Shown in pieces: positions 6,355 to 30,182 of a stretch of DNA of 36,066 nucleotides. The notes under the pieces were generated by a model. It saw only the letters and a program-made list of their open reading frames with translations, had not been told where the DNA came from and did not search any database. The stretch comes from an uncultured bacterium (GTDB lineage: Bacteria > Bacteroidota > Bacteroidia > Bacteroidales > CAIWKO01): the NCBI GenBank assembly GCA_903862465.1, contig CAIOYH010000074.1:1-36066 (forward strand), given 5' to 3'. The position numbers were made by a program, and so were the translations under genes. Each line of letters starts with the position of its first letter. Position 1 is the first letter of the stretch.

Positions 6355-8874
6355 TTGCTCCTTATCATTATATCTCAAGCACATGCTCAAGTGATTGCGA
6401 CGGATAGTTTATTATCGAATAAAAAGGATAGTTTAGCTATCCTGAACGATACTATCAAGAAAGATACCATTATTGATTTACGCGATCAACTTGCACCTAG
6501 CGCTATAGGGTCAAAGATAGACTATCAAGCTACGGATTCCATAAAATTGAGTATCACGGAGAAAAAAGCGTATCTGTATAACACTGTTGTGATAAAATAT
6601 GAAACGATAACTTTACAGGCAGGTTATGTGGAAATGAATTTTGCCAATAATTCGTTGTATGCAGATGGTGTGCTTGATTCTTTGGGGAAAGAAGTGCAAA
6701 AGCCTGACTTTATTGATGGATCAAATACTTTTTCTGCCACGAGTTTGGATTATAATTTCGAAACAAAGAAAGGATTGGTCAAAAACATCATTACCAACGA
6801 GGGGGAGAGCTATTTGCATGGAAATATAGTGAAACGTTTCCCTGATCATTCAGCAAATATCAAAAACGGTTTATATACTACCTGTGAAGAAGAAGTGCCA
6901 CATTATGCTATAAAGTTCAGCAAAGCACGTATGACAGCCAATGATAAAATTGTTTCAGGTCCTGCGTATATGGAGATAGAAGGTGTGCCGACGCCTTTGG
7001 TGTTGCCTTTCGGATATTTTCCTAATAAAAAAGGACAAGTGTCAGGGATACTTATTCCAACATGGGGCGAATCGGCAAACCGTGGGTACCACTTCGATAG
7101 GGGGGGGTATTATTGGGGAATTAATGATTTTATTGATTTGACCTTACAGGGAGATATCTATACAAGAGGAAGTTGGGCTGCTTATGCATCATCCACTTAC
7201 AGAAAGAAATATAAATATCAAGGGAATATTGCGCTTTCGTATGCTGTTAATATTATGAGTCAGAAATTTTTGCCTGATTATTCACGAAACAAAGCTTTCA
7301 AGATTCTATGGAGTCACAGACAAGATCCTAAGGCTCGCCCGAACAGTAGTTTTTCGGCTAACGTAAATATCGTTAGTAGTAATTTTTCAAAATATAATCC
7401 AACTTCCAACACTGAATATCTTTCGAATACTTTCGAGTCGAGTATAGCGTATCAAAAAACACTTTTCAGAGGGAAGGCAAATTTATCCTTGAACATTGGT
7501 GGTACACAAAACGTAACTACCAAGGAATTGAATTTGAAACTCCCGCAGTTGAATTTTTCGGTGAATACGTTTTATCCTTTCCGCAAGAAGAATAAAGCAG
7601 GCGCACTGAAGTGGTACGACAATATTAGTGTGGGTTACACCATGAATATGGATAACAATATCAATACTTATGATAGTTTGTTGTTGACTCCACGCATATT
7701 TAGTTTGATGCAAAACGGTATGCAGCATAGTATCCCAATACGCAGCACGGTGAAGGTGTTGAAGTTTATAAATTGGACAAATGCTATTACCATTAACGAA
7801 AGATGGTATTTGCGTTCTATAGATAAGCAATGGTATAATGATGAGGTGAACGATACTTCGTATTTGAAATCAGATACGATACAGGGTTTTCAGATGGCAC
7901 ACGAATTTAATTTCTCCTCTTCTGTAACCACCAAACTTTATGGCATGTATCAGTTTAAGAAGGGAGCATTGAAAGCTATTCGGCATGTGATGACGCCTTC
8001 GATTAGTTTTGTGTATCGTCCTGATTTTGGTTCTCGGTTTTGGGGATATTATAAATACGCACAAACAGATATGGTTGGACATTTTCGTAGGTATTCTATC
8101 TTTGAAAACAATGTGTATGGTTCGCCTGCCGATGGATTGTCGGGCAGAGTGGTTATGAGCATAAACAATAATTTGGAAATGAAAATCCGCAACAGAAAAG
8201 ATACAATTACAGGCTCGAAGAAGATTATGTTGTTGGATAATTTGGGCATACAAACAGCTTATGATATCGCAAAAGATTCTTTGCGTTGGGACCCTATCTC
8301 CATCAATGGTAGAACTCGTTTGTTTAATTTGTTGGATATCAATTTTACAGGAGCTTGGGATATGTATGCCTCGGATTCATTGGGGCGCATCAATAAGTAT
8401 GAATGGAATGTTCACCATCGTATCTTGCACCGCAGTAATACACATTGGATTTTGGGGATGTCCTATACCCTCAGCGATAAAACATTTCAGAAGAAGGATA
8501 AAAAGAACAACACCACCAAACCGATTTTCTTCAACCAATGGAATGTAAATCTAAGTTTAAGTTATACTTCCTCTGCCAATTTTATGTACTTGACTCGGAT
8601 GTATAAACATGATACCATTCTAACTTTAGGTATCAATGGTGAGCTTTATGTTACTCCAAAATGGAAAGTAAGTTTTACGACAGGTTATGATTTTATCCAC
8701 AAGAAGTTTTCCTTCACTTCCTTCAATATACATCGCGATTTGCATTGTTGGGAAATGGAGTTGGAATGGATACCGTATGGTTTCAGAAAGAGTTATAATT
8801 TCACTATCCGTGTGAAATCAACCATTTTGAAAGATTTGAAAATTACACAGAAAACCGATTTTCGCGATAATTAA
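6355..8874 (+). CDS. lptD: LPS-assembly outer-membrane protein LptD (Bacteroidota type)
   Basis: 839 residues as annotated. The protein takes LPS from the periplasmic Lpt bridge and inserts it into the outer leaflet of the outer membrane. An N-terminal OstA/LptA-like beta region covers about 60-200. The Bacteroidota LptD signature follows, including EGVPTPLVLPFGYFPNKKG and SGILIPTWGE, then a long C-terminal beta-barrel rich in alternating aromatic strands. The start is problematic. The only usual codon near the front is TTG at 6355, which leaves the short leader MLLIIISQAHA. The same frame is open upstream to a stop at 6244, and residues RLFVSI directly before it would complete a normal signal peptide starting at an ATA codon at 6334. 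No in-frame ATG occurs until well inside the mature domain. Followed 15 bp later by the DUF3822 gene. Confidence 0.88.
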   Translation: MLLIIISQAHAQVIATDSLLSNKKDSLAILNDTIKKDTIIDLRDQLAPSAIGSKIDYQATDSIKLSITEKKAYLYNTVVIKYETITLQAGYVEMNFANNSLYADGVLDSLGKEVQKPDFIDGSNTFSATSLDYNFETKKGLVKNIITNEGESYLHGNIVKRFPDHSANIKNGLYTTCEEEVPHYAIKFSKARMTANDKIVSGPAYMEIEGVPTPLVLPFGYFPNKKGQVSGILIPTWGESANRGYHFDRGGYYWGINDFIDLTLQGDIYTRGSWAAYASSTYRKKYKYQGNIALSYAVNIMSQKFLPDYSRNKAFKILWSHRQDPKARPNSSFSANVNIVSSNFSKYNPTSNTEYLSNTFESSIAYQKTLFRGKANLSLNIGGTQNVTTKELNLKLPQLNFSVNTFYPFRKKNKAGALKWYDNISVGYTMNMDNNINTYDSLLLTPRIFSLMQNGMQHSIPIRSTVKVLKFINWTNAITINERWYLRSIDKQWYNDEVNDTSYLKSDTIQGFQMAHEFNFSSSVTTKLYGMYQFKKGALKAIRHVMTPSISFVYRPDFGSRFWGYYKYAQTDMVGHFRRYSIFENNVYGSPADGLSGRVVMSINNNLEMKIRNRKDTITGSKKIMLLDNLGIQTAYDIAKDSLRWDPISINGRTRLFNLLDINFTGAWDMYASDSLGRINKYEWNVHHRILHRSNTHWILGMSYTLSDKTFQKKDKKNNTTKPIFFNQWNVNLSLSYTSSANFMYLTRMYKHDTILTLGINGELYVTPKWKVSFTTGYDFIHKKFSFTSFNIHRDLHCWEMELEWIPYGFRKSYNFTIRVKSTILKDLKITQKTDFRDN

Positions 8875-10449: not shown

Positions 10450-12915
10450 ATGAAAAGATACTTTATACTTTTTCTCCTTCTCTCAACAAGTTTCGGCGTT
10501 TTTGCGCAATCGAAGCATGGGCATAGCGCTTCAGGTCAAAGTAACAAAACAAAAGCGGATAGCCTCAAAAACAAAGCCGACACAGCAGCCAATGCAGGAG
10601 GGGTGCACAACAAATTGTTGTTGGAGTCTGACACACTCACCGCGAGCGATTATATGTTGAGCATCCAACGTGTGAACGATAACCTGAATGAGATTCGCGA
10701 CAGCATCAAATTAAATTTTGATTTGACGAGCATGAGTCAACGCAATAGTGCCATCATGAAGGATGTTACAACGATACGCCGTAATATATTTGACAAACAT
10801 TCCGTAATACGTATCAAAAATCTCTATCTCTATCAAAACTTCGCCTCAAATTTGGATGATGAGGTGGATGGCTATCAAAAGCATGTGGCAGCGGAGTATA
10901 ATACGGTATATCGCGCCAAACTTCTGTTAAAAAAGGTGTTGACCGACTCTGTTTTTCGCAAGTTGTATGCCGACAGCAGTCTTCGCAAGACGTATGACAA
11001 GAAGCTGATACGTTTGGAACGCAAATGGGCTAAGACCGACTCCACGGCAAAAGCCACCATCGACAGCCTCAATGCACTCAAAGTGAAAGTGGCTGACAAT
11101 GCCATCAGCCTGACCAATATGTTGAAAATTATCGAAAGCAAATTGGACAAAGCCGGACAACAACTCTTTGGCAAAGAGGTGAACTTCCTTTGGGAACAAA
11201 CGCCTGCCATCGTTCAAGTGAAAGACACTTCGAGCAAACCTCAAAGTTTGTTTGTTAACGAAAGCAAAGCCATAGGATATTATTTCAATCAAACGTCGCA
11301 ACAGCGAGGCGTGGTGTTAGCATTGGGTGTATTGCTTCTTTTTTGGCTTCTTATGAAACGAAAACTCTTGAAAAGAATACGCACACAAAAAGAAAACTTC
11401 GAGTATCTCCAAATGCATTATCTGAACAAAAGCCCCATCTTTGCCATTTTCGTAATTATATTTTGTTTGATGCCTTTTTTTGATGCTTATGCGCCCACAG
11501 CTTATTTCAGCATCGAATATTTAGTGTTGCTGCTCGCCTCATCCTTCATCATTTTCAGAAACAAAGAATCCTTCCGTTTCGATTTCTTGATATTAGCTGT
11601 AGTGTTCATCGCAATTGCGTTCACCTTTTTGCAAATTGAACCCACCTTACCCGCTCGTTTGTGGCTCTTACTGCTTCATGCCGCGGTGGTCGTGTTCTCC
11701 TTGCGTATCTACAAAAAGCTTCACCTACAAAAGTCTTACGTCAAATTGACCCGTTCGGCTGCCATCGTCGCTATACTATTAGCCACCCTAGCCATCTTCA
11801 GCAATCTCTTCGGTAGGTTTTCTTTGTCGAACATCTTGGGCATTTCCGCTGTGATTGCCATCACTCAGGCGGTCATCTTGCCTATATTTATCCAAAGCAT
11901 CCTCGAAATCATCTTGGTGCAACTGCTCGGCAGCCGTTTGAAAAAAGGCGTTGACAAACCTTTCAACAGCAGCATCGTTATCAACAGAATCAAAGGACCT
12001 TTGTTGATACTTGCCCTCATCGTGTGGGGCATTATGTTGGCATCCAACCTCAACCTGTTTCATAGCATCAGCAATAGCGTGGTGGAGATGATGACCGTGC
12101 AACGTAGCTTGGGGAGCATCTCCTTTAGATTGGTCAACTTGCTGTTCTTTTTTGTTATTATTTGGTTTGCTCATATTTTGCAACAGTTGATAAGCTTTTT
12201 GTTTGGCGAAATTGGTAGCGAAGCCGAAGATATGACTCCTGCCACCAAAGGACAACACTCCCGCCTATTGATCACCCGCCTGTTGGTGCTCATAGGTGGC
12301 TATATGCTTGCCATTGCGGCATCGGGATTGCCCTTAGACAAACTCACTTTCCTCTTGGGCGCTTTGGGCATCGGTATTGGTATGGGTTTGCAAAACATGG
12401 TCAACAACTTTGTGTCGGGCATCATCCTGATTTTCGATGGCTCGTTGAAGATAGGCGACGAAATTGATGTGTGCGGACAAAATGGCAAGGTGACCGAAAT
12501 TGGTTTGCGCGCTAGCACTATACATACCCCCGACGGTGCTGAAGTCATCATCCCCAACGGCAACATCCTATCGGAAAACATCATAAATTGGACTCTGCCG
12601 AACGACCAACGCTGTGTGACGCTTCATTTTTCCTTGGCGGGAAACGAATTGGATGCCAACATGATTAACGAAGTTATCAACACCACCATCAAAGCCGTTC
12701 CCCATGTGATTTCCAAACGCAAACCCGTGATACTCTATACTAAGGTGAAACAGGAAACCTACTCGCTAACCGTCCGCTTTTGGTGCAACCTCCATCGAGC
12801 CGACGACGTGAAAAGCGATGCCACGCTCCACCTCAACGAAGCTTTCACTGCCAAACATATCGGATTTACATTCAACTCATTCACGGCGGAGGAAATCTTT
12901 GTTAATGTGAAGTGA
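10450..12915 (+). CDS. MscS-family mechanosensitive ion channel (large, multi-helix type)
   Basis: 821 residues from the ATG at 10450. This start gives a signal peptide (1-20, ending GVFAQ); an in-frame ATG at 10387 would put 21 extra residues of low-complexity spacer in front. A periplasmic helical region (about 60-270) rich in charged residues is followed by a series of membrane helices starting near 287. The MscS pore-lining helix and beta domain lie at about 627-740 and include GALGIGIGMGLQNMVNNF, IFDGSLKIGDEIDV and VIIPNGNILSENIINW. The layout resembles MscK/YbiO-type channels. Its role is to open under membrane tension and release solutes during osmotic downshock. The upstream spacer is made of short simple repeats. 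Confidence 0.93.
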   Translation: MKRYFILFLLLSTSFGVFAQSKHGHSASGQSNKTKADSLKNKADTAANAGGVHNKLLLESDTLTASDYMLSIQRVNDNLNEIRDSIKLNFDLTSMSQRNSAIMKDVTTIRRNIFDKHSVIRIKNLYLYQNFASNLDDEVDGYQKHVAAEYNTVYRAKLLLKKVLTDSVFRKLYADSSLRKTYDKKLIRLERKWAKTDSTAKATIDSLNALKVKVADNAISLTNMLKIIESKLDKAGQQLFGKEVNFLWEQTPAIVQVKDTSSKPQSLFVNESKAIGYYFNQTSQQRGVVLALGVLLLFWLLMKRKLLKRIRTQKENFEYLQMHYLNKSPIFAIFVIIFCLMPFFDAYAPTAYFSIEYLVLLLASSFIIFRNKESFRFDFLILAVVFIAIAFTFLQIEPTLPARLWLLLLHAAVVVFSLRIYKKLHLQKSYVKLTRSAAIVAILLATLAIFSNLFGRFSLSNILGISAVIAITQAVILPIFIQSILEIILVQLLGSRLKKGVDKPFNSSIVINRIKGPLLILALIVWGIMLASNLNLFHSISNSVVEMMTVQRSLGSISFRLVNLLFFFVIIWFAHILQQLISFLFGEIGSEAEDMTPATKGQHSRLLITRLLVLIGGYMLAIAASGLPLDKLTFLLGALGIGIGMGLQNMVNNFVSGIILIFDGSLKIGDEIDVCGQNGKVTEIGLRASTIHTPDGAEVIIPNGNILSENIINWTLPNDQRCVTLHFSLAGNELDANMINEVINTTIKAVPHVISKRKPVILYTKVKQETYSLTVRFWCNLHRADDVKSDATLHLNEAFTAKHIGFTFNSFTAEEIFVNVK

Positions 12916-13203: not shown

Positions 13204-13971
13204 ATGGCAACAGAATTAAACATTAACGAACTTACAGTTCTAAGACTTAACCGTAAAGACAAAGTTTCGAATATAATAGAGGCTGCACTTGGTCAAAATA
13301 CCACTGGAAATCCTTTGTTTACAAATATTACGTATGATGATACTGAAATGCATGGCTTTGGAACGGCACTGCAAACAGTTCATACAAAATTTAATGCAAA
13401 ACCTCCTACAGCAACAAAAGCAGAAGTTACAATAGCAGTAGATGTTGTCGTTGACGCTCATGGTATTAATGGAAGTGAAGTTCAAGGAATTGCCCGCACA
13501 CAAGCAAAAGCGGCTGGAAATGTGAATGTTGGGATTAATATCATTCTAAAAGCAGGGTATTTTTACAAAAAGCCTAAATCTGCTATGGAAAATGCCTTTG
13601 ATGCTCAACCTGATGGACCAAATGCAGTAAAAATTACTACTAAAGCAGTTGCTCAACGTGCAGTTTATATTAGAGATTGGGCACAAGTATCTGGCAAAAA
13701 TGTAATTCCTTTACCTGGAGAAATGAAGGAACGCTTAATTAGTACAGAAAATGATATACGTGTTGAGGGTTTGGAAACTGCAGGAGTCTATGCATTTCGT
13801 GAAGCTACTATATTGCCAATTAGTCGCAAATCCGATAGCGGTACTCCAACTCCTCAACCTGAAACAAAGGCAACTAAATCAAAAGCTACTAAGGCACATC
13901 GTCGTACTTTTAGTGCACAAGCCGAGACAAATTATGACTTTGGTCCTTGGATTTGGGCAGTTTCTCAATAA
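13204..13971 (+). CDS. Unrecognised 255-residue protein, possibly with an FnIII-like C-terminal part
   Basis: I do not recognise a named family. The N-terminal half (about 1-110) looks alpha-helical with alanine-rich segments. The part at about 120-205 contains KAVAQRAVYIRDWAQVSG and later VEGLETAGVYAFREATILP, which resembles the strand pattern of fibronectin type III-like modules. The tail (about 206-235) is a Pro/Thr/Lys linker, ending with an aromatic FGPWIWAVSQ. There is no signal peptide. Codon usage is more AT-rich than in the mscS gene before it. It lies between core genes and the cassette block, with a 21-bp repeat array just after its stop. The sequence GTTGCCTG at 13015-13022 hints that this gene could itself be an older cassette, but the match is weak. 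Confidence 0.75.
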   Translation: MATELNINELTVLRLNRKDKVSNIIEAALGQNTTGNPLFTNITYDDTEMHGFGTALQTVHTKFNAKPPTATKAEVTIAVDVVVDAHGINGSEVQGIARTQAKAAGNVNVGINIILKAGYFYKKPKSAMENAFDAQPDGPNAVKITTKAVAQRAVYIRDWAQVSGKNVIPLPGEMKERLISTENDIRVEGLETAGVYAFREATILPISRKSDSGTPTPQPETKATKSKATKAHRRTFSAQAETNYDFGPWIWAVSQ

Positions 13972-14042: not shown

Positions 14043-14315
14043 GATTTACCTTATCCATGTCTGGATTTACCTTATCCATGTCTGGATTTACCTTACCCAT
14101 GTCTGGATTTACCTTGCCCATGTCTGGATTTACCTTACCCATGTCTGGATTTACCTTGCCCATGTCTGGATTTACCTTACCCATGTCTGGATTTACCTTA
14201 CCCATGTCTGGATTTACCTTGCCCATGTCTGGATTTACCTTGCCCATGTCTGGATTTACCTTACCCATGTCTGGATTTACCTTCCCCATGTCTGGATTTA
14301 CCTTACCTTGGTATG
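14043..14315. repeat. 21-bp tandem repeat array 2 (13 copies)
   Basis: GATTTACCTT recurs at 14043 and every 21 bp after it through 14295. The unit continues (A/G/C)(C/T)CCATGTCTG. Variation is almost confined to two adjacent bases (TA-T, TA-C, TG-C, TC-C types), so the array is much more uniform than the other two in this window. Both strands stay open as MSGFTLP and MGKVNPD heptads, which I take as a result of the period rather than coding. It fills the spacer between the unknown gene and the cassette block. Confidence 0.95.
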
Positions 14316-14373
14316 TTTAAGGTAAACGATGATTTTTATGTAGATTATTTTTTATTTGTAATCAGAAAATGTA

Positions 14374-14418: not shown

Positions 14419-14500
14419 ACGGCAACCGATCCAATCCGGACGCTTGCCGTAATAAATATAGTAGATATTGCCGTAATACGGCAACTTAAGCGTTATCGTT
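14419..14500 (+). other. Left recombination boundary of the cassette block
   Basis: The heptamer ACGGCAA or its complement TTGCCGT occurs four times: direct at 14419 and 14478, inverted at 14444 and 14468. TTGCCGTA (14444-14451) can pair with TACGGCAA (14477-14484). The site ends with GTTATCGTT at 14492-14500, the 5' end of the first cassette, whose reverse complement recurs at 16680-16688. It could be a degenerate attC site, or an attI-like site from a lost integrase; I cannot tell which. Confidence 0.5.
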
Positions 14501-14569
14501 CATGCTTAGAAAAATGGAGACAGTTGACAACTTCTGAATTTTGTAGGCTCAATAATAATTTTGAAATAG

Positions 14570-14577
14570 TATCTTTG
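14570..14577 (+). promoter_or_regulatory. -7 promoter element just before the methyltransferase gene
   Basis: TATCTTTG matches TAnnTTTG and ends only 4 bp before the ATG at 14582. If used, transcription would begin at or beside the start codon, giving a leaderless or nearly leaderless message. It lies inside the cassette, so the pair would carry its own promoter. Confidence 0.45.
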
Positions 14578-14581
14578 CATC

Positions 14582-15775
14582 ATGATTTTAGAACAAAAAA
14601 AATTAGACGTAATAGCTAAAAAAAGGTCAAACTTATTCAATTGGCGCGGACAGTTTACACCTGAGTTTGTTGAGTATATTCTTACTTCGTTCGCCAAAGA
14701 AGGAGACCACATATTTGACCCATTTTCTGGTAGTGGAACAGTATTACAAGAATCTGCAAGACTCGGTTTGACAGCAACAGGATTTGAGATAAATCCATCT
14801 GCTTATGCAATGTCGAGATTTTTCAGTTTTTGTAATTTAACAAGTGGTGAACGTAATCATTTCTGTAATTCATTTGAGACGAAGTTAAATTTTCAACTAC
14901 TAGGACTCAATGGAGAAAAAGTATATGTGGACAATGAGGATTATCGTGTAGCTTATGCAAATCTCTTAGCTTTTGCTATAAGTTTTGACCATTTTATCTC
15001 AGACAAACAAGAAAGAATTTTTTTCATGAATATTCTTTTTCAATCTGAAAAGGATAAGAAACTTACTGTTTCCGAATCAATACTGAAATCGTTTTATTAT
15101 ACTAAAAATTGCCTTTTACATCTTCCCTATACTACCAATTCAATCCAATCAAAACTTTTAGATGCAAAAAAATCAGGAGAGTATCTTACAAATAATGTTG
15201 ACCTTATTTTAACATCCCCGCCTTATATTAATGTATTTAATTATCATCAAAATTATAGAGCAATAATTGAGACATTTCATTTCGATATACTCAAAGTTGC
15301 ACATAGCGAATTTGGCTCAAATAGAAAAAACAGAGGTAACAGATTTAAAACAGTAATTCAGTATTGCATAGATATGGAATTGGCAATAAGGTCATTTTGG
15401 AAAGCGCTTAAACCAGATGCAAAAATGATTTTGGTTGTTGGTAGGGAATCAAATGTAAGAGGTATTCCGTTCTATAATGGACAGTTGGTAATGGAAATTA
15501 TAGAACAGACAAATGGTTTTTCAGAAATAGAAACTTCAGAACGGCAATTTACTAATAAGTTTGGGGTTACAATTAAAGAGGATATAATAATTGCATCAAA
15601 AACAAATAATTTATCTGATTCTTTAAATGGTCGAAATATCGCAATATCACATTTAGAACAAAGTCTTAAAACTACCCAAGACGGAGTTTATTTAGACCTT
15701 ACCGAAGCTATTTTAAATAGTGAAGAAGTTAAAGAATCCCCAATTTTCAACCCAACATTAATATTAAAAAAATGA
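14582..15775 (+). CDS. DNA amino-methyltransferase of a type II restriction-modification system
   Basis: 397 residues. It transfers methyl groups from S-adenosylmethionine to the exocyclic amine of adenine or cytosine at the recognition site, protecting host DNA. The SAM-binding motif FDPFSGSGT is at residues 45-53, preceded by GQFTPEF. The catalytic TSPPY is at 211-215, followed by INVFNYHQNYR. Motif I coming before motif IV with about 160 residues between them is the alpha- or gamma-type order. The TSPPY form is common in N4-cytosine enzymes but is not decisive. The gene ends in a 4-bp overlap with the endonuclease gene and lies in the first cassette (14492-16732). Recognition specificity cannot be read from sequence; if the partner truly is Bpu10I-like, CCTNAGC-like sites are a candidate. 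Confidence 0.9.
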   Translation: MILEQKKLDVIAKKRSNLFNWRGQFTPEFVEYILTSFAKEGDHIFDPFSGSGTVLQESARLGLTATGFEINPSAYAMSRFFSFCNLTSGERNHFCNSFETKLNFQLLGLNGEKVYVDNEDYRVAYANLLAFAISFDHFISDKQERIFFMNILFQSEKDKKLTVSESILKSFYYTKNCLLHLPYTTNSIQSKLLDAKKSGEYLTNNVDLILTSPPYINVFNYHQNYRAIIETFHFDILKVAHSEFGSNRKNRGNRFKTVIQYCIDMELAIRSFWKALKPDAKMILVVGRESNVRGIPFYNGQLVMEIIEQTNGFSEIETSERQFTNKFGVTIKEDIIIASKTNNLSDSLNGRNIAISHLEQSLKTTQDGVYLDLTEAILNSEEVKESPIFNPTLILKK

Positions 15776-16662
15776 GCAGCACACCACACAGAGAAAAATT
15801 ATTAGCAGCGATAACAAATCCAAAATGTAGTGGAGATGTAACATTATTAAATGAAGCATTGACAGCTTATGAAAACTGGATTACTCAAACGATAGGACTT
15901 ACTTCTAATGGAGAAGAAAGAATTAATGAAATGACGGCGCTTCTCAATGAGTATAAAGATTACCTTGAAGTTGACCTTATTGCAACAAGAGGGTCTGAAT
16001 TTCTAAAAAGACAGAAAGGTCAATTGAAGTTAGACAATAGTGTAATGGAAGAATTCCTCATTCATTTGGTAAGTCCTCATATCCTTACAAATTTGCCCGC
16101 ATTTTCACTCGAAACCGGACCGCAAACAGCCTTTATGTCTTTAGCATTTCGACCCTCAAGCGTTTCAACATTAAATCAAAAACCTGAAATAATCGTCAAA
16201 GTAAAAGACCAGGATTTTACTATTGGAAAAGCAATTCACTATAAGTTTTCATCTGATGCAGCATTTACAGCACCGAAAACCGTAGATGGAAAATTTTTCT
16301 TGGCAGTTCTGGCAGCAGAATGTAAAATAAACTATGACAAGACAATGTTTCAAGAATGTGCCGGTACAGCTTCTCGATTAAAACAAGGTTGTCCAATTGC
16401 AAAATATTATGCTCTTGTAGAGTATTTAGACATGCAACCCGAAGATACACGTTTAACTGAAATTGATAATGTATTCTTACTTCGTAAAGCCAAACGTTTA
16501 CCTTTTGAAAAACGAAGCTCATTAGCAGAGGTAAAAGCTCAACACAGGGACTTTCCTATATCATCAGAAGTGATTGGAAAGTTTACTCATGAAATACAAA
16601 GGTTCGTTGATGCTACTTGGTACAATCCTGACGAGGCTTTAGAAAGAGGTTCTTTCGTATAG
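15772..16662 (+). CDS. Type II restriction endonuclease, probably Bpu10I-like family
   Basis: 296 residues. The block AAECKINYDKTMFQE (about 181-195), followed by a KYYALVEYLDM strand, is the conserved core of the Bpu10I-like group of PD-(D/E)xK endonucleases, with Glu183 and Lys185 as the E-x-K part of the site. The region before it (about 138-180) would supply the acidic metal ligand. The start codon overlaps the end of the methyltransferase gene (ATGA), so the two are translationally coupled, with the methyltransferase made first, as expected for safe establishment. Bpu10I itself is a heterodimer encoded by two endonuclease genes; only one is present here, so a homodimer or palindromic site is possible. 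The 3' end runs directly into attC site B. Confidence 0.78.
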   Translation: MSSTPHREKLLAAITNPKCSGDVTLLNEALTAYENWITQTIGLTSNGEERINEMTALLNEYKDYLEVDLIATRGSEFLKRQKGQLKLDNSVMEEFLIHLVSPHILTNLPAFSLETGPQTAFMSLAFRPSSVSTLNQKPEIIVKVKDQDFTIGKAIHYKFSSDAAFTAPKTVDGKFFLAVLAAECKINYDKTMFQECAGTASRLKQGCPIAKYYALVEYLDMQPEDTRLTEIDNVFLLRKAKRLPFEKRSSLAEVKAQHRDFPISSEVIGKFTHEIQRFVDATWYNPDEALERGSFV

Positions 16663-16679
16663 AATAAAAAAAAGCACGA

Positions 16680-16742
16680 AACGATAACGCAAAAATTGCA
16701 GTAATTGAAAAAAAAACTGCAATTTTATTTCCGTTATCAGTA
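16680..16742 (+). other. attC-like site B (end of the restriction-modification cassette)
   Basis: Left end AACGATAAC (16680-16688) is the exact reverse complement of the cassette's own start GTTATCGTT at 14492. Inner arms AAAATTGCAGT (16692-16702) and ACTGCAATTTT (16716-16726) form an 11-bp stem. Outer GATAACG pairs with CGTTATC. The right end GTTATCAG (16733-16740) starts the next cassette. Confidence 0.85.
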
Positions 16743-16761
16743 ATTTTAGAAAGACCCGACA

Positions 16762-17406
16762 ATGACAGATTGGTACAGACGAAAAACTTGGACTAAAACA
16801 GATGAAGAAGAATACTTCGCCAAACTTGGACGTGCAAGAAAGGACGGACGAGCTCAATATTTAAGAGTTCAAGCAATCGAACTTATTGAAACTAAGAATA
16901 AGAATTTACTATCTGTTGCAGAGACTCTTTTGAACAAAATATTGACAGATTACCCTGACAACAGAATTGAAAAAAGTCAAACATATAACTCATTAGGAGA
17001 TATATATCAACTGAGAGAAGACTACAAAACGGCATTGGAGTATTTTCAGAAATCGCTTGACTTTGAAAAAGAGTTTCCCAATGTAATTACAACTGCGTAT
17101 TTAAATTTTTCTGAAACAGTTGTGCGTGCAGAAAGAACAGATTTATATGACGAAGTTGAAAATCTTCTTATTGAAAAAATAAATAAAGACACTTTAAAGT
17201 TTCCAATTCAAAACTACATTATGTACTCTGTAATGACGGTCATCTCAGAATTTAAAGGAAACAGAAAACAAGCAAATATTTATTCAGACTTAGCAGAAAA
17301 GAACGCTACGACACAAACAAATTCACTTTGGAACCCGCAAAAGAAAAAATGGGGAGTTGTAAAAGAGAGAATAAAATGGTTAGACAAACTTGTTGGAAGA
17401 AAATAA
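16762..17406 (+). CDS. Small tetratricopeptide-repeat protein (cassette gene)
   Basis: 214 residues. At least one clear TPR is visible at about 73-106: the pattern TYNSLGDIYQL, then DYKTALEYFQKSLDFE. Flanking helices (about 35-65 and 108-185) probably form further degenerate repeats. The N-terminus WYRRKTWTKTDEEEYFAKLGRARKDGR is charged and lacks a signal peptide, so the protein is cytoplasmic. TPR proteins bind other proteins, but nothing shows the partner. The ATG lies 29 bp after the cassette boundary, which is typical of cassette genes. The gene is alone in its cassette (16734-17464). Very similar N-termini occur in other small Bacteroidota TPR proteins (from memory), so it may be a widely shared cassette cargo. 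Confidence 0.85.
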   Translation: MTDWYRRKTWTKTDEEEYFAKLGRARKDGRAQYLRVQAIELIETKNKNLLSVAETLLNKILTDYPDNRIEKSQTYNSLGDIYQLREDYKTALEYFQKSLDFEKEFPNVITTAYLNFSETVVRAERTDLYDEVENLLIEKINKDTLKFPIQNYIMYSVMTVISEFKGNRKQANIYSDLAEKNATTQTNSLWNPQKKKWGVVKERIKWLDKLVGRK

Positions 17407-17410
17407 AAAA

Positions 17411-17473
17411 TACTGATAACTAAAAAATTGCAGTAATTGAAAAAAAAACTGCAATTTTCTATCCGTTACCAAC
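17411..17473 (+). other. attC-like site C (end of the TPR cassette)
   Basis: Left end TACTGATAAC (17411-17420) is the exact reverse complement of the TPR cassette start GTTATCAGTA (16733-16742), a 10-nt match. Its arms AAAATTGCAGT (17424-17434) and ACTGCAATTTT (17448-17458) and loop are identical to site B over 36 bp. The right end GTTACCAAC (17465-17473) starts the next cassette. Confidence 0.88.
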
Positions 17474-17494
17474 AATGCGAAAAAATAAACCCAA

Positions 17495-18472
17495 ATGGAT
17501 TTACCAGAAATACTATATGACTATTATAAATCAGTTCTAGAACCATTTTTTCCCAAATGTGGACAAATATCAAGGTATAGTGGAATGAGTGACTTTAAAA
17601 ATGACATTATCTCTGATATTAAAATTACACTAGATAACACATATGAATTTTTTAAAGAGAGTGATTTCTTTATTGATAAGGGGACTGAAATAGTCCATTT
17701 TACATCTCTTCAAAATGCCATTTCGATAGTTAAGGACTTAAAAATAAGATTATATAGTATTGACAGCCTGGACGACCCAAATGAAGTGAAACGCATAACT
17801 GATATTATTACTTTTTTAGAAAATGACAATATTTATAATCCCGAGAATCAAAAGGAGAGTTTCTATATTTTTTGTGGTTCAGATTACACAAAAATAAATA
17901 GTGACAAATCTGCGGAGTTTAATATGTGGCGTTTATATGGGAATTCAGGTAATGGAATTGGTCTGGTTTTTAAATATGATGATGAGCCACAAAATATTTA
18001 TAAGTGTTATTTGAGCAAAGTTTATTATGAGAATAATTCTATTTTCCAACAATGCTATCAAAATCATAGAAAATTCGCAGATGAACATAATTACACAATA
18101 AGCGGACTAGATAATGTGTTAGTGCCATTGTCTCTTTTTTATAAAGACCATATATACAAAATTGAGAATGAAATAAGAATTCTTAAAAAGATGTCTTTAT
18201 TAGAAAATCGGACCAAAACCATTGGTTATGATTTTAAAAAAAGCAGAAAAGTTCCATATTATGATTTGCCCTTTAATTCAAAAAAACTTGGTGCTGAACC
18301 GAATCTAGAATTGACTAAAATAATAATTGGCTATAAATACAAAACAAAGGAAAAACAAGAATTAGAACAACTGTTTGATGGCCTCAATTATTTAAATGAA
18401 AGGATTCCATTCACTATTGAGCAAACATCACTGAAAGACGACTATTTCAATGAAGGGCAATCACACAAATGA
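17495..18472 (+). CDS. DUF2971 domain protein (cassette gene)
   Basis: 325 residues. The pattern of DUF2971 is visible: VHFTSLQNAISIVKD (about 70), then YSIDSLDDPNEVKR (about 89-102), SFYIFCGSD, and FNMWRLYGNSGNGIGLVFKYDD in the middle. The biochemical activity of the family is unknown. Members are often found as accessory genes on islands, and a defence role has been suspected, but this sequence does not prove it. No signal peptide or membrane segment is seen. The gene is AT-rich, carried alone between attC sites C and D, and starts 30 bp after the cassette boundary. The C-terminal end (about 285-325) is a charged helical tail. Confidence 0.85.
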   Translation: MDLPEILYDYYKSVLEPFFPKCGQISRYSGMSDFKNDIISDIKITLDNTYEFFKESDFFIDKGTEIVHFTSLQNAISIVKDLKIRLYSIDSLDDPNEVKRITDIITFLENDNIYNPENQKESFYIFCGSDYTKINSDKSAEFNMWRLYGNSGNGIGLVFKYDDEPQNIYKCYLSKVYYENNSIFQQCYQNHRKFADEHNYTISGLDNVLVPLSLFYKDHIYKIENEIRILKKMSLLENRTKTIGYDFKKSRKVPYYDLPFNSKKLGAEPNLELTKIIIGYKYKTKEKQELEQLFDGLNYLNERIPFTIEQTSLKDDYFNEGQSHK

Positions 18473-18504
18473 TAAAACTAATTAATTTGAAACAGAAACG
18501 CACA

Positions 18505-18640
18505 GTTGGTAACAAAGGCTTGCTATCAGCGGCGTTCGTGTCTTCGTGGACACGAACGCAAGTTATTTAGCGTTTGTCCTTGCGGACAACTATTCGGCTA
18601 TAAAATCGCCGCCGAATAGCAAGCCTCAACCGTTGGTGGC
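18505..18640 (+). other. attC-like site D, long form (end of the DUF2971 cassette)
   Basis: Left end GTTGGTAAC (18505-18513) is the exact reverse complement of the cassette start GTTACCAAC at 17465. Arms GGCTTGCTAT (18517-18526) and ATAGCAAGCC (18616-18625) pair perfectly. Inside them GCGGCG pairs with CGCCGC. Two internal hairpins (18535-18556 and 18574-18589) fill the loop. The right end GTTGGTGGC (18632-18640) opens the next cassette. Confidence 0.9.
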
Positions 18641-18666
18641 AATATTTAAACAAAAACATCAAAATA

Positions 18667-19647
18667 ATGTGGAGTAAAATTGGAAAATGGATTGGTAAAT
18701 CGCTAATTGTAAGCATTGTTGTTTATTTGGTAATATGTTTGGTTCTTATTTATTGGCCAATCAATATTGAGAAAAATGTTAAAAACTATGATTATAGTTC
18801 AATCAAGGGAAACTCAGAATCATATTTGGGGAAAGAACAATGGATTAAAACAAGAGACAATTACGAGATTTTCAATAGAGTATATAAGAGTGATAGTAAA
18901 GATGTATTAATTTTAATTCATGGTTCTGGGTCAGAAAGTAGATACTTGGCGAATTTAGCGGATTCAATTGCCAAAGCAAATATTGCCACTGTCTTAACGC
19001 CTGACATGAGAGGTCACGGAAGAAACAGTGGAAAAAGAGGAGATATTGATTACATTGGACAACTTGAAGACGACATTGAAGATTTGATTCAATTCAGCAA
19101 AAAAAATCTTGGCGCTAAAAAAATAATTTTAGCAGGGCATTCTACTGGAGGAGGTTTCGTTTTGAGGTTTATTGGAAACCCGAAAAATAGTAAGGTGGAT
19201 AAGGCAATTCTGCTCTCACCTTATCTAGGGTATGATGCACCAACCGTTAAACCCAATAGCGGAGGATGGGTGAAAGTTGCCTTGAAAAGAATCATCGGAC
19301 TGTCAATGTTAAATAAAATAGGCATTAAAAGTTTTAACAATTTACCTGTTTTGTTTTTTAATCGCCCAGAAGATATTAATGATAACTTACAAGTTCCTTA
19401 CTATTCATTCAATATGACAATGAATTTCGACACCAAGAATTATAAAGACGAAATAAAAAATATTAATATTCCTTGCCTAGTTTTGGTTGGAAAACAAGAT
19501 GAAAGTTTTTATTCTGAACAATTCCCCAAAATATTTGAGCCAGCCAAAAAATTTGTTCGCTTAGAAATATTGGATAGTGTAAAACATTTAGACATTGTTA
19601 AGAGTCATCAAGTATTTGAAATAATTAAAGAATGGAACAAAGATTAG
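18667..19647 (+). CDS. Membrane-anchored alpha/beta hydrolase (cassette gene)
   Basis: 326 residues. One N-terminal membrane helix (about 12-30) is followed by a serine hydrolase of the S33/lysophospholipase type. The oxyanion loop HGSGSES begins at residue 85, and MRGHGRNSG is at 114-122. The nucleophile elbow GHSTGGG puts the serine at 159. Probable acid and base are Asp278 in GKQDE and His307 in VKHLD, so the triad is complete. The substrate is unknown; esters of lipids or small molecules are possible. It is a single-gene cassette between attC D and E, with the ATG 34 bp after the boundary. Confidence 0.9.
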   Translation: MWSKIGKWIGKSLIVSIVVYLVICLVLIYWPINIEKNVKNYDYSSIKGNSESYLGKEQWIKTRDNYEIFNRVYKSDSKDVLILIHGSGSESRYLANLADSIAKANIATVLTPDMRGHGRNSGKRGDIDYIGQLEDDIEDLIQFSKKNLGAKKIILAGHSTGGGFVLRFIGNPKNSKVDKAILLSPYLGYDAPTVKPNSGGWVKVALKRIIGLSMLNKIGIKSFNNLPVLFFNRPEDINDNLQVPYYSFNMTMNFDTKNYKDEIKNINIPCLVLVGKQDESFYSEQFPKIFEPAKKFVRLEILDSVKHLDIVKSHQVFEIIKEWNKD

Positions 19648-19666
19648 GAACAAGAGAAATACTACT

Positions 19667-19786
19667 GCCGCCAACAAGGGTTTTGCGTCAGGTGGGCTGA
19701 AGTGCAAACTTGGTGCTAATTGCTACTATTAAAATGTAGTGACAAATTGAAGCTTTGTGTTCCGAAACCCGCCCCCTGTTCAGCTT
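19667..19786 (+). other. attC-like site E, degenerate (end of the hydrolase cassette)
   Basis: GCCGCCAAC (19667-19675) matches the reverse complement of the hydrolase cassette start GTTGGTGGC except for one position that still pairs as G-T. GGGTTT (19678-19683) can pair with AAACCC (19765-19770), and a GTT at 19778 marks the likely right end. The middle is less symmetric than site D, and what follows is a core-type lipoprotein gene, so the array may end here. Confidence 0.6.
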
Positions 19787-29806: not shown

Positions 29807-29930
29807 ATATTTTATGATAGAAATATTTTTTAAGATGAATGGAATAGTATATAAGATGAAAATAATATAGGTTGAAATAATAGATAAGTTATTTATATTG
29901 AATATTATATATTTTATGATGAAAGAATCA

Positions 29931-30182
29931 ACCGCCATTCTAAAAGAAATCTCCGCAATAGTAAAAATAATCTCCGCTGAGATGAAAATAATCTCCGCAG
30001 AACAAAATACAATCTTCGTAATAATAAAAATAATCTCCGCAATAGTGAAAACAATATCCGCAGAAATAAAGATAATCTCCGCAAATATAAAGACAATCTC
30101 CGCAACAATAAAAATAAAGTCCGCAATAGTCAGGAGACAGTCCGCAATAGTAAAGACATAGTCCGCAATAGTGGGGACAGTG
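29931..30182. repeat. 21-bp tandem repeat array 3 (12 copies)
   Basis: TCCGC or a close variant recurs at 29931, 29952 and every 21 bp to 30162 without a single slip in phase. The best-conserved part is TCCGCAATAGT; the remaining 10 bp vary (AAAAATAATC-like). Copies at 29931 and 30015 are the most diverged. Both strands stay open as heptads (for example KIISAEM on the plus strand), explained by the 21-bp period. Confidence 0.93.

What the first reader, a model, noticed from the sequence alone, without database searches (positions are those of the whole stretch)
14492..19786. Integron-like cassette array without a visible integrase
Four consecutive one- or two-gene units, all on the plus strand, each start with GTT plus a unit-specific sequence and end in a hairpin site whose left end is the reverse complement of that unit's own start: GTTATCGTT/AACGATAAC, GTTATCAGTA/TACTGATAAC, GTTACCAAC/GTTGGTAAC and GTTGGTGGC/GCCGCCAAC. 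In integrons this pattern arises because a circular cassette's single attC site is split on insertion. Four such pairs in order are very unlikely by chance. No integrase is in the window, so this is CALIN-like. The core sites deviate from the classical RYYYAAC/GTTRRRY consensus in several positions, so the recombinase may be of a divergent type.
Basis: partly seen in the sequence, partly recalled or inferred. Interest (0 to 1): 0.92.

Follow-up and report, generated by a model that had tools for sequence, protein, structure and literature searches.

The report
Integron without the classic integrase domain
A bacterial gene-capture array like the integrons that spread resistance genes, but belonging to a family whose recombinase lacks the protein insert, and whose DNA hairpins mostly lack the bulged bases, that are held to be the mark of integrons.

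Summary
The cassette array is real. Three of four units have 9-10 nt start/end complementarity and a strong hairpin; the fourth has one core mismatch and no supported hairpin. The array starts at an attI-like site. Contig C5 of the same genome carries the matching platform: a tyrosine recombinase, an attI with direct repeats, and three cassettes. One C5 cassette is 95.5% identical to one in a sister species, the match ending at the GTT cores; flanks are unrelated and the recombinase region is 74% identical. At the window's own site another sister species carries a different cassette behind homologous left-flank DNA. The recombinase family is found mainly in Bacteroidota: in 96 loci, 75 cassette sites lie downstream on its strand and 3 upstream. 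All 96 lack the IntI-specific insert (25-30 residues where 19 of 19 IntI have 67), and most sites lack the extrahelical base (45 of 55 without any bulge; IntI controls 25 of 26 with it). IntI and this family are separate clades. So this is an integron-type system outside IntI, bearing on the published view that the insert made integrons possible. Recombination itself is inferred, not shown; subscription papers and preprints could not be searched.

The parts
14444..14491 (+). attI-like site: direct repeat TTGCCGTAATA at 14444-14454 and 14468-14478, ending 13 nt before the first core GTT; no recombinase gene beside it
   Evidence: a repeat this long in 0.3% of 1000 shuffles; alignment with the attI regions of C5, G296 and G298
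14492..16732 (+). cassette 1: N6/N4 DNA methyltransferase (14582-15775) and Bpu10I-type restriction endonuclease (15772-16662)
16680..16741 (+). attC-like site 1 (AAC end 16688, core GTT 16733)
   Evidence: 30.0 bits; the site was in the model's training set; z -6.4
16733..17464 (+). cassette 2: TPR-repeat protein (16762-17406)
17412..17473 (+). attC-like site 2 (AAC end 17420, core GTT 17465)
   Evidence: 30.8 bits; training set; z -5.8
17465..18631 (+). cassette 3: DUF2971 protein (17495-18472)
18505..18640 (+). attC-like site 3, long loop (AAC end 18513, core GTT 18632)
   Evidence: z -5.6; not reported by model R1
18632..19777 (+). cassette 4: alpha/beta hydrolase (18667-19647)
19667..19786 (+). 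probable degenerate terminal attC (AAC end 19675, GTT 19778): core match with one mismatch, hairpin not supported
   Evidence: z 0.06

Best explanation
The stretch is an integron-type cassette array, started by its own attI-like site, in a genome that carries the cognate platform on another contig. A tyrosine recombinase of an IntI-like but separate family (here the 450-aa protein of contig C5) binds folded single-stranded attC hairpins, cuts at the GTT core, and inserts circular one- or few-gene cassettes at an attI that lies mostly 45-140 nt downstream of its own stop codon, in the direction in which the recombinase gene is read. The window array would be served in trans, or was cut off from a lost copy of the gene. 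Shown by comparison: array anatomy, recombinase association and orientation, cassette-wise exchange with breakpoints at the cores, absence of the IntI insert and mostly of the extrahelical base. Inferred: that the substrate is single-stranded, that the bottom strand is used, that the C5 enzyme acts on the window array, and that the unequal spacers (usually 2-4 nt against 4-7 nt), perhaps with the HARP-like N-terminal domain, serve as landmark in place of the extrahelical bases.
For: Own genome: recombinase L010:9581-10933, then core GTT at 11039, cassettes starting at 11039, 13470 and 15481, and a further core at 18647. Cassette mobility: 2019 nt at 95.5% identity with G296 C28, the match running from CGTT to CGTTA, 20-27% ungapped identity over 20-60 nt outside on both sides, recombinase region 74%. 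Orthologous site in G298 with another cassette. Unanchored changepoint at a core in 2 pairs of close loci. Family, hairpin required: 75 sites downstream same strand (488 kb), 3 upstream same strand (776 kb), 8 and 2 on the other strand; first cassette start within 300 nt of the stop in 23 loci, at 28-251. Family, hairpin NOT required: exact 10-nt start/end pairs starting 10-300 nt after the stop, 37 in 35 of 64 loci, against 11 in 9 loci for a zone further down the array and 2 in 2 loci for the other strand beyond the gene start; a hairpin follows in 14 of the 37, against 136 of 5500 AAC triplets (2.5%) in the same DNA. Spacers unequal in the same sense in 75 of 77 downstream sites without filtering for it. 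Catalytic R, K, H, R, H, Y kept in 96 of 96. IntI (19 rows) and family (96 rows) on separate branches, SH-aLRT 99 and 95.
Against: No recombination was observed. Only 39 of 96 family loci showed a hairpin site (38 of the 64 with at least 1.5 kb downstream); the rest may be arrays that the detector misses or recombinases with another role. The samples are biased: the 80 genome-contig loci are the best of a capped list found with an alignment of array-positive members, and some of the 20 extended loci were chosen after a positive first scan, so 39 of 96 is no prevalence. The covariation count (inner stem 96.8% paired) is partly circular, because the detector demanded that stem. The window array has no recombinase beside it, and G298 had no family match at E 1e-40 (81% complete). 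Direct repeats in attI are clear in 4 of 5 loci of the genus but reach p <= 0.05 in only 5 of 23 loci of the wider family. G298's attC folds no better than shuffles, and the first attC of C5 (AAC end 13330) was missed by the detector. With IntI, sites without extrahelical bases still react with attI, 6-fold less (PMC2727003, passages), so their absence alone does not prove another enzyme.
Confidence: 0.86

Rival explanations
1. Ordinary IntI integron remnant (CALIN): the sites are attCs left by an IntI that is absent, lost or unassembled, and the C5 recombinase is a bystander.
For: True IntI over the curated cut-off occurs in 84 of 296 sampled genomes of the phylum; the layout of the hairpins, unequal spacers included, is similar; the assembly has 230 contigs; IntI can use sites without extrahelical bases against attI at a lower rate (PMC2727003, passages).
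Against: No match over the TIGR02249 cut-off in the own genome. With one detector, sites of 19 IntI loci of the same phylum carry a 5'-arm bulge in 25 of 26 and lie upstream on the opposite strand in 21 of 26; of the family's 66 sites 55 lie downstream on the same strand, and 45 of these 55 have no bulge. The C5 recombinase heads an array of such sites and the pattern repeats across the family.
Confidence: 0.07
2. A double-stranded Xer/dif-like module system: genes bounded by recombination sites that are used as duplex DNA, the hairpins serving only as terminators between genes.
For: The C5 recombinase scores just over the XerA model (220.8 against 220 bits); the best solved relatives by E-value are an archaeal Xer and XerA, XerA also by fold; several attI regions hold imperfect inverted repeats (by eye).
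Against: Each unit's end complements its own start, as a split hairpin predicts; a hairpin follows such ends far more often than other AAC triplets, 14 of 37 against 2.5%; spacers are unequal in one sense in 75 of 77 sites.
Confidence: 0.05
3. Transcription terminators or other inverted repeats between operons, with chance complementarity at the ends.
For: Chains of three end pairs without hairpins occur in 25 of 1000 shuffles of the window.
Against: Hairpin-plus-pair sites are rare in shuffles, lie on one strand and one side of the recombinase, and a cassette exchange ends exactly at the cores.
Confidence: 0.02

Closest known systems
IntI integrons (class 1, Vibrio and other chromosomal integrons; IntI4 structure 2a3v)
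   Same: Tyrosine recombinase, attI, arrays of cassettes each ending in a hairpin site split on insertion, core GTT, unequal spacers, cassette exchange.
   Different: Recombinase lacks the insert (25-30 against 67 residues), forms another clade, is read in the direction of the array rather than away from it; sites mostly lack the extrahelical base.
Treponema-type integrons with the integrase read in the direction of the cassettes (PMC3607928, passages seen)
   Same: Integrase and cassettes in one direction.
   Different: The paper calls those genes intI; whether they carry the insert was not tested here.
XerA and other Xer recombinases; NCBIfam NF040815 'site-specific tyrosine recombinase/integron integrase'
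   Same: Same two-domain catalytic core without the insert; the C5 protein scores 220.8 bits against a cut-off of 220.
   Different: Xer proteins are known for acting on duplex dif sites (recalled); the own genome's two Xer-like proteins lie outside the family.
'Integron-like' subgroup of tyrosine recombinases (Smyshlyaev 2021, PMC8138268, section 7 read)
   Different: The paper calls the insertion essential for integron function; here proteins without it head cassette arrays.

Membership tests
Integron of the IntI type | Recombinase with the IntI-specific insert (I2 domain) | tested here: not met
   25-30 residues between anchors in 96 of 96 family rows, 67 in 19 of 19 IntI; C5 protein 211.5 bits against the TIGR02249 cut-off of 265
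Integron of the IntI type | Array of cassettes whose ends complement their own starts | tested here: met
Integron of the IntI type | attI beside the recombinase gene | tested here: met
   C5 (core 105 nt after the stop) and 23 family loci, first core 28-251 nt after the stop; the window array has an attI-like site but no recombinase beside it
Integron of the IntI type | attC with extrahelical base on the L'' arm | tested here: not met
   of 55 same-strand downstream sites 45 have no bulge, 8 a 3' bulge, 2 a 5' bulge; IntI controls 25 of 26 with a 5' bulge
Integron of the IntI type | Recombinase divergent from the array | tested here: not met
   same direction; a known exception exists in Treponema
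Integron of the IntI type | Cassette-wise exchange with breakpoints at the core | tested here: met
   C5; window site; 2 of 8 pairs testable, both at a core
Integron of the IntI type | Recombination of single-stranded attC shown | not testable with these tools
   needs an assay
CALIN (attC cluster without integrase) | At least two attC sites, no integrase beside them | tested here: met
   an attI-like site is present too
CALIN (attC cluster without integrase) | Match to the IntegronFinder attC model | not tested
   model not available
Xer/dif modules | Duplex dif-like 28-bp sites at the module ends | not tested
   no dif model was run

The most novel reading that the evidence does not exclude
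A second kind of integron, sister to or independent of IntI, recombines single-stranded attC hairpins without the I2 domain and mostly without extrahelical bases; enzyme and site differ from IntI at just the two parts that meet in the IntI-attC complex, and the hairpin is read by its unequal spacers, in many members perhaps with help of a HARP-like N-terminal domain. It would be widespread in Bacteroidota, with a few instances in bins of other phyla and one binned as an archaeon.
Probability: 0.6. Interest if true: 0.93.

Novelty: new variant of a known kind. Interest (0 to 1): 0.87.

Why it matters
[quoted passage not shown] A family that keeps cassette arrays while lacking the insert, and mostly the bulges, makes that account directly testable, gives a natural comparison enzyme, and shows a cassette reservoir in Bacteroidota that surveys requiring the IntI insert would pass over.

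Tried and rejected
Rfam at gathering thresholds found nothing in the window. Model R1 reported only short-loop sites in the window and C5; long-loop site 3 was not reported. In the whole genome it returned one site at E <= 1, on C5; only 150 of 448 candidates were scored and even the window sites did not appear, so this is no census. A pattern for the short hairpin had exact matches only at C5 and at the two window sites. The idea that the gene upstream of both arrays (window 13204-13971, L010:8202-8948) belongs to the system was dropped: it is a multicopy family, 11 matches in the own genome. A clean empty site with both flanks could not be shown: in G296 and G298 other genes lie left of exbB, so a rearrangement intervenes. 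A relative of the window's methyltransferase and endonuclease pair in G284 (66.5% nt identity) has no cassette sites by the detector and so does not show cassette transfer; that search hit 4 of 395 genomes, the own included. HARP in the N-terminus is below Pfam's cut-off (E 5e-5, 0.0019 and 1.1 in 3 of 10 segments), so it is called HARP-like only. Of 8 locus pairs given to the unanchored breakpoint test, 2 aligned without gaps and both broke at a GTT core; the other 6 gave no usable ungapped alignment. In neither of the 2 had the hairpin detector called a first cassette there; for L120, L184 and L186 the pairs-only test does find one starting at 105-106. In the GTT-anchored version the anchor was chosen to favour a break, so it is not counted. 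Chryseobacterium plasmid L274 gave one weak site, L275 and L276 none. The covariation count is not used as independent evidence, because its sites were picked by their stems. Classical IntI CALIN, Xer/dif modules and terminators were considered and rated low.

Rows dropped: L051, L060, L106, L159, L183, L192 (no recombinase by my motif, although L051 has a chain of sites); the second recombinases in L174 and L162; for model R1, sites whose spacers did not differ by 3, sites with a short loop and sites that I judged to be on the wrong strand or side (35 of 86 kept).
Full report
What is in the window. The window is contig C74 of an unnamed 4.2-Mb draft genome of 230 contigs; gene content and relatives point to Bacteroidota (inference). 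Four plus-strand units follow one another from 14492 to 19777. Starts and ends agree in 9, 10, 9 and 9 of 10 positions. Sites 1-3 have 11-bp stems and fold far better than shuffles; site 4 does not. Genes: a methyltransferase with a Bpu10I-type endonuclease, a TPR protein, a DUF2971 protein and an alpha/beta hydrolase. Pairs alone are only moderately unlikely, 25 of 1000 shuffles reaching a chain of three or more; pairs with hairpins are rarer.

The platform in the same genome. The own genome has three Phage_integrase matches. The one on C5 (450 aa) is the best TIGR02249 hit but stays under the cut-off, 211.5 against 265 bits. Downstream of it, on the same strand, lie a core GTT at L010:11039 and cassettes starting at 11039 (histidine kinase and two response regulators), 13470 (methyltransferase and a gene without Pfam match) and 15481 (DuOB, two DUF488, ParA-like), with a further core at 18647 just before the contig ends. 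The site between the second and third cassette is almost the same sequence as window sites 1 and 2. The first attC of C5 was missed by the detector and is placed by its core match. The attI regions of C5, of sister species G296 (C28) and of the window align around ATATAG. They hold direct repeats of 11-12 nt (p 0.019, 0.008, 0.003); a second G296 platform has one of 10 nt (p 0.021); G298's site has none. So the window array begins at an attI-like site without a recombinase gene beside it.

Cassettes move singly. C5 cassette 2 matches G296 contig C28 over 2019 nt at 95.5% identity. The match runs from CGTT to CGTTA. Outside it, ungapped identity is 20-27% over 20, 40 and 60 nt on either side; inside it is 90% over the first and last 20 nt and 95% over the last 60, falling to 52% over the first 60, where the two sequences differ by a length change. 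The recombinase region is 74% identical in the two species. In G296 the cassette lies behind cassettes starting at 8207 and 10274. At the window's own site, sister species G298 has homologous left-flank DNA (gene 75% identical in protein, 81% in DNA, and a 57-nt match reaching window 14382), the attI-like site, and then a different cassette with a DNA-glycosylase-like gene (by eye) and a site of the same make as window site 3, whose AAC is changed to GAC. A family recombinase was not found in G298 at E 1e-40. In two further pairs of close recombinase loci an unanchored changepoint falls just behind a shared GTT, 109 and 110 nt after the stop.

The recombinase family. Matches at E <= 1e-20 occur in 273 of 296 genomes sampled from the phylum, XerC/D-like ones probably among them. 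Eighty named loci with flanks were kept from a capped list in genome contigs. Most titles are Bacteroidota, isolates such as Flavobacterium, Pontibacter, Rufibacter and Arenibacter among them; there are also bins of Nitrospirota, Nitrospinae, Aminicenantes, Neomarinimicrobiota, WOR-3, Ignavibacteria and Altarchaeum, and two Bacillota isolates. Over 96 family loci (77 of these 80, 18 of 20 extended loci, and C5) the detector found 75 sites downstream on the same strand in 39 loci, 3 upstream, and 10 on the other strand, although the upstream DNA was longer. Among the 77 alone, 27 loci had downstream sites. The same detector gave one downstream same-strand site and one upstream opposite-strand site in 19 IntI loci. 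Contigs end within 1.5 kb of the recombinase stop in 32 of 77 loci, against 5 of 77 before the gene, as repeat-rich arrays would cause. In the first scan of the 80 loci, 67 plus-strand and 46 minus-strand sites (the latter largely mirror readings of the same hairpins) compare with 6 and 4 in one Markov shuffle of each locus.

A test that does not presuppose the hairpin. Exact 10-nt start/end pairs that start 10-300 nt after the recombinase stop were counted in the 64 loci with at least 1.5 kb downstream: 37 pairs in 35 loci. A control zone 590-880 nt after the stop, itself inside the arrays, gave 11 in 9 loci; the other strand beyond the gene start gave 2 in 2. A hairpin follows the AAC in 14 of the 37, against 136 of 5500 AAC triplets in the same DNA. 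So arrays next to the recombinase are commoner than the hairpin detector shows, and the hairpin goes with the cassette ends.

How it differs from IntI. On a quick tree of 118 rows (SH-aLRT support only), 19 IntI rows from the same phylum form one branch (99) and 96 family rows another (95), array-positive members being scattered through it; which of them is nearer to Xer is not settled, as only three Xer-like rows were used, one on a very long branch. Between two conserved anchors the family has 25-30 residues (96 of 96), IntI 67 (19 of 19); the six catalytic residues are kept in all 96. The profile match to IntI4 likewise skips residues 182-241 of it. The AlphaFold model of L116, from an Ignavibacteria bin (pLDDT 84, pTM 0.61), has XerA and IntI4 as first matches. 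With one relaxed detector for both groups, IntI loci gave 26 sites, 21 of them upstream on the opposite strand and 25 with a 5'-arm bulge; family loci gave 66, of which 55 downstream on the same strand, 45 of these 55 without bulge. So the detector sees classical attCs, and the classical orientation is the rule for IntI here. Unequal spacers are common to both groups; in the family 75 of 77 downstream sites have the shorter spacer on the AAC side, no filter applied. In the 35 sites used for model R1 the base before the core GTT is always C, which the detector did not ask for; their inner stem is 96.8% paired, but that was largely imposed by the selection.

How it most likely works. As in IntI integrons, a cassette's hairpin is cut at one core and joined to attI, giving new cassettes next to the recombinase. 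The published landmarks for IntI are missing, so the enzyme should read the hairpin otherwise; unequal spacers are the obvious candidate, although in the IntI system inverting the spacer did not change strand choice (PMC2727003, passages). The N-terminal HARP-like domain, weak by Pfam, is attractive because HARP domains are associated with forked DNA (recalled), but two array-positive members have open frames of only 290 and 308 codons (L180, L176) and probably lack it, so it cannot be essential everywhere.

Literature. Ten searches of the held library (listings and abstract beginnings; two returned nothing) showed no paper on integrons without I2 or on such arrays in Bacteroidota. Integrons in Bacteroidota are known as such (PMC8618304, PMC9668308 and PMC2426708, passages; in the last, hits were required to have the insert). 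Subscription papers and preprints are not held, so novelty is not certain. NCBI names some members 'site-specific tyrosine recombinase/integron integrase', so a likeness to integron integrases is already in annotation.

Noticed in passing
window 14056-14315; 7-378; 29898-30161; L010:9024-9330: Short intergenic tandem arrays, of 21-nt units at 14200-14328 and of similar units elsewhere by eye, that stay open in frame; two lie just upstream of the integron arrays.
   Followed up: no
window 13204-13971: A multicopy gene family without Pfam match: 11 matches in the own genome and 5 in sister species G298.
   Followed up: partly
plasmids listed: Catalytic-core relatives (about 53% identity over two thirds of the query) on Acinetobacter and other proteobacterial plasmids, one annotated TnpF; whether they act on cassettes is unknown.
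   Followed up: no
window 20239: Synteny with sister species breaks here: in G296 and G298 a Kup-like transporter (by eye) and another gene lie left of the exbB operon instead.
   Followed up: partly
L096 (Candidatus Altarchaeum bin): An array with recombinase in a contig binned as archaeal; could be transfer or a binning error.
   Followed up: no
window 14582-16662 and L010:13517-15396: Methyltransferase-led cassettes (the window one a clear restriction-modification pair) at the first and second position of the two arrays; the C5 one is also in G296.
   Followed up: no
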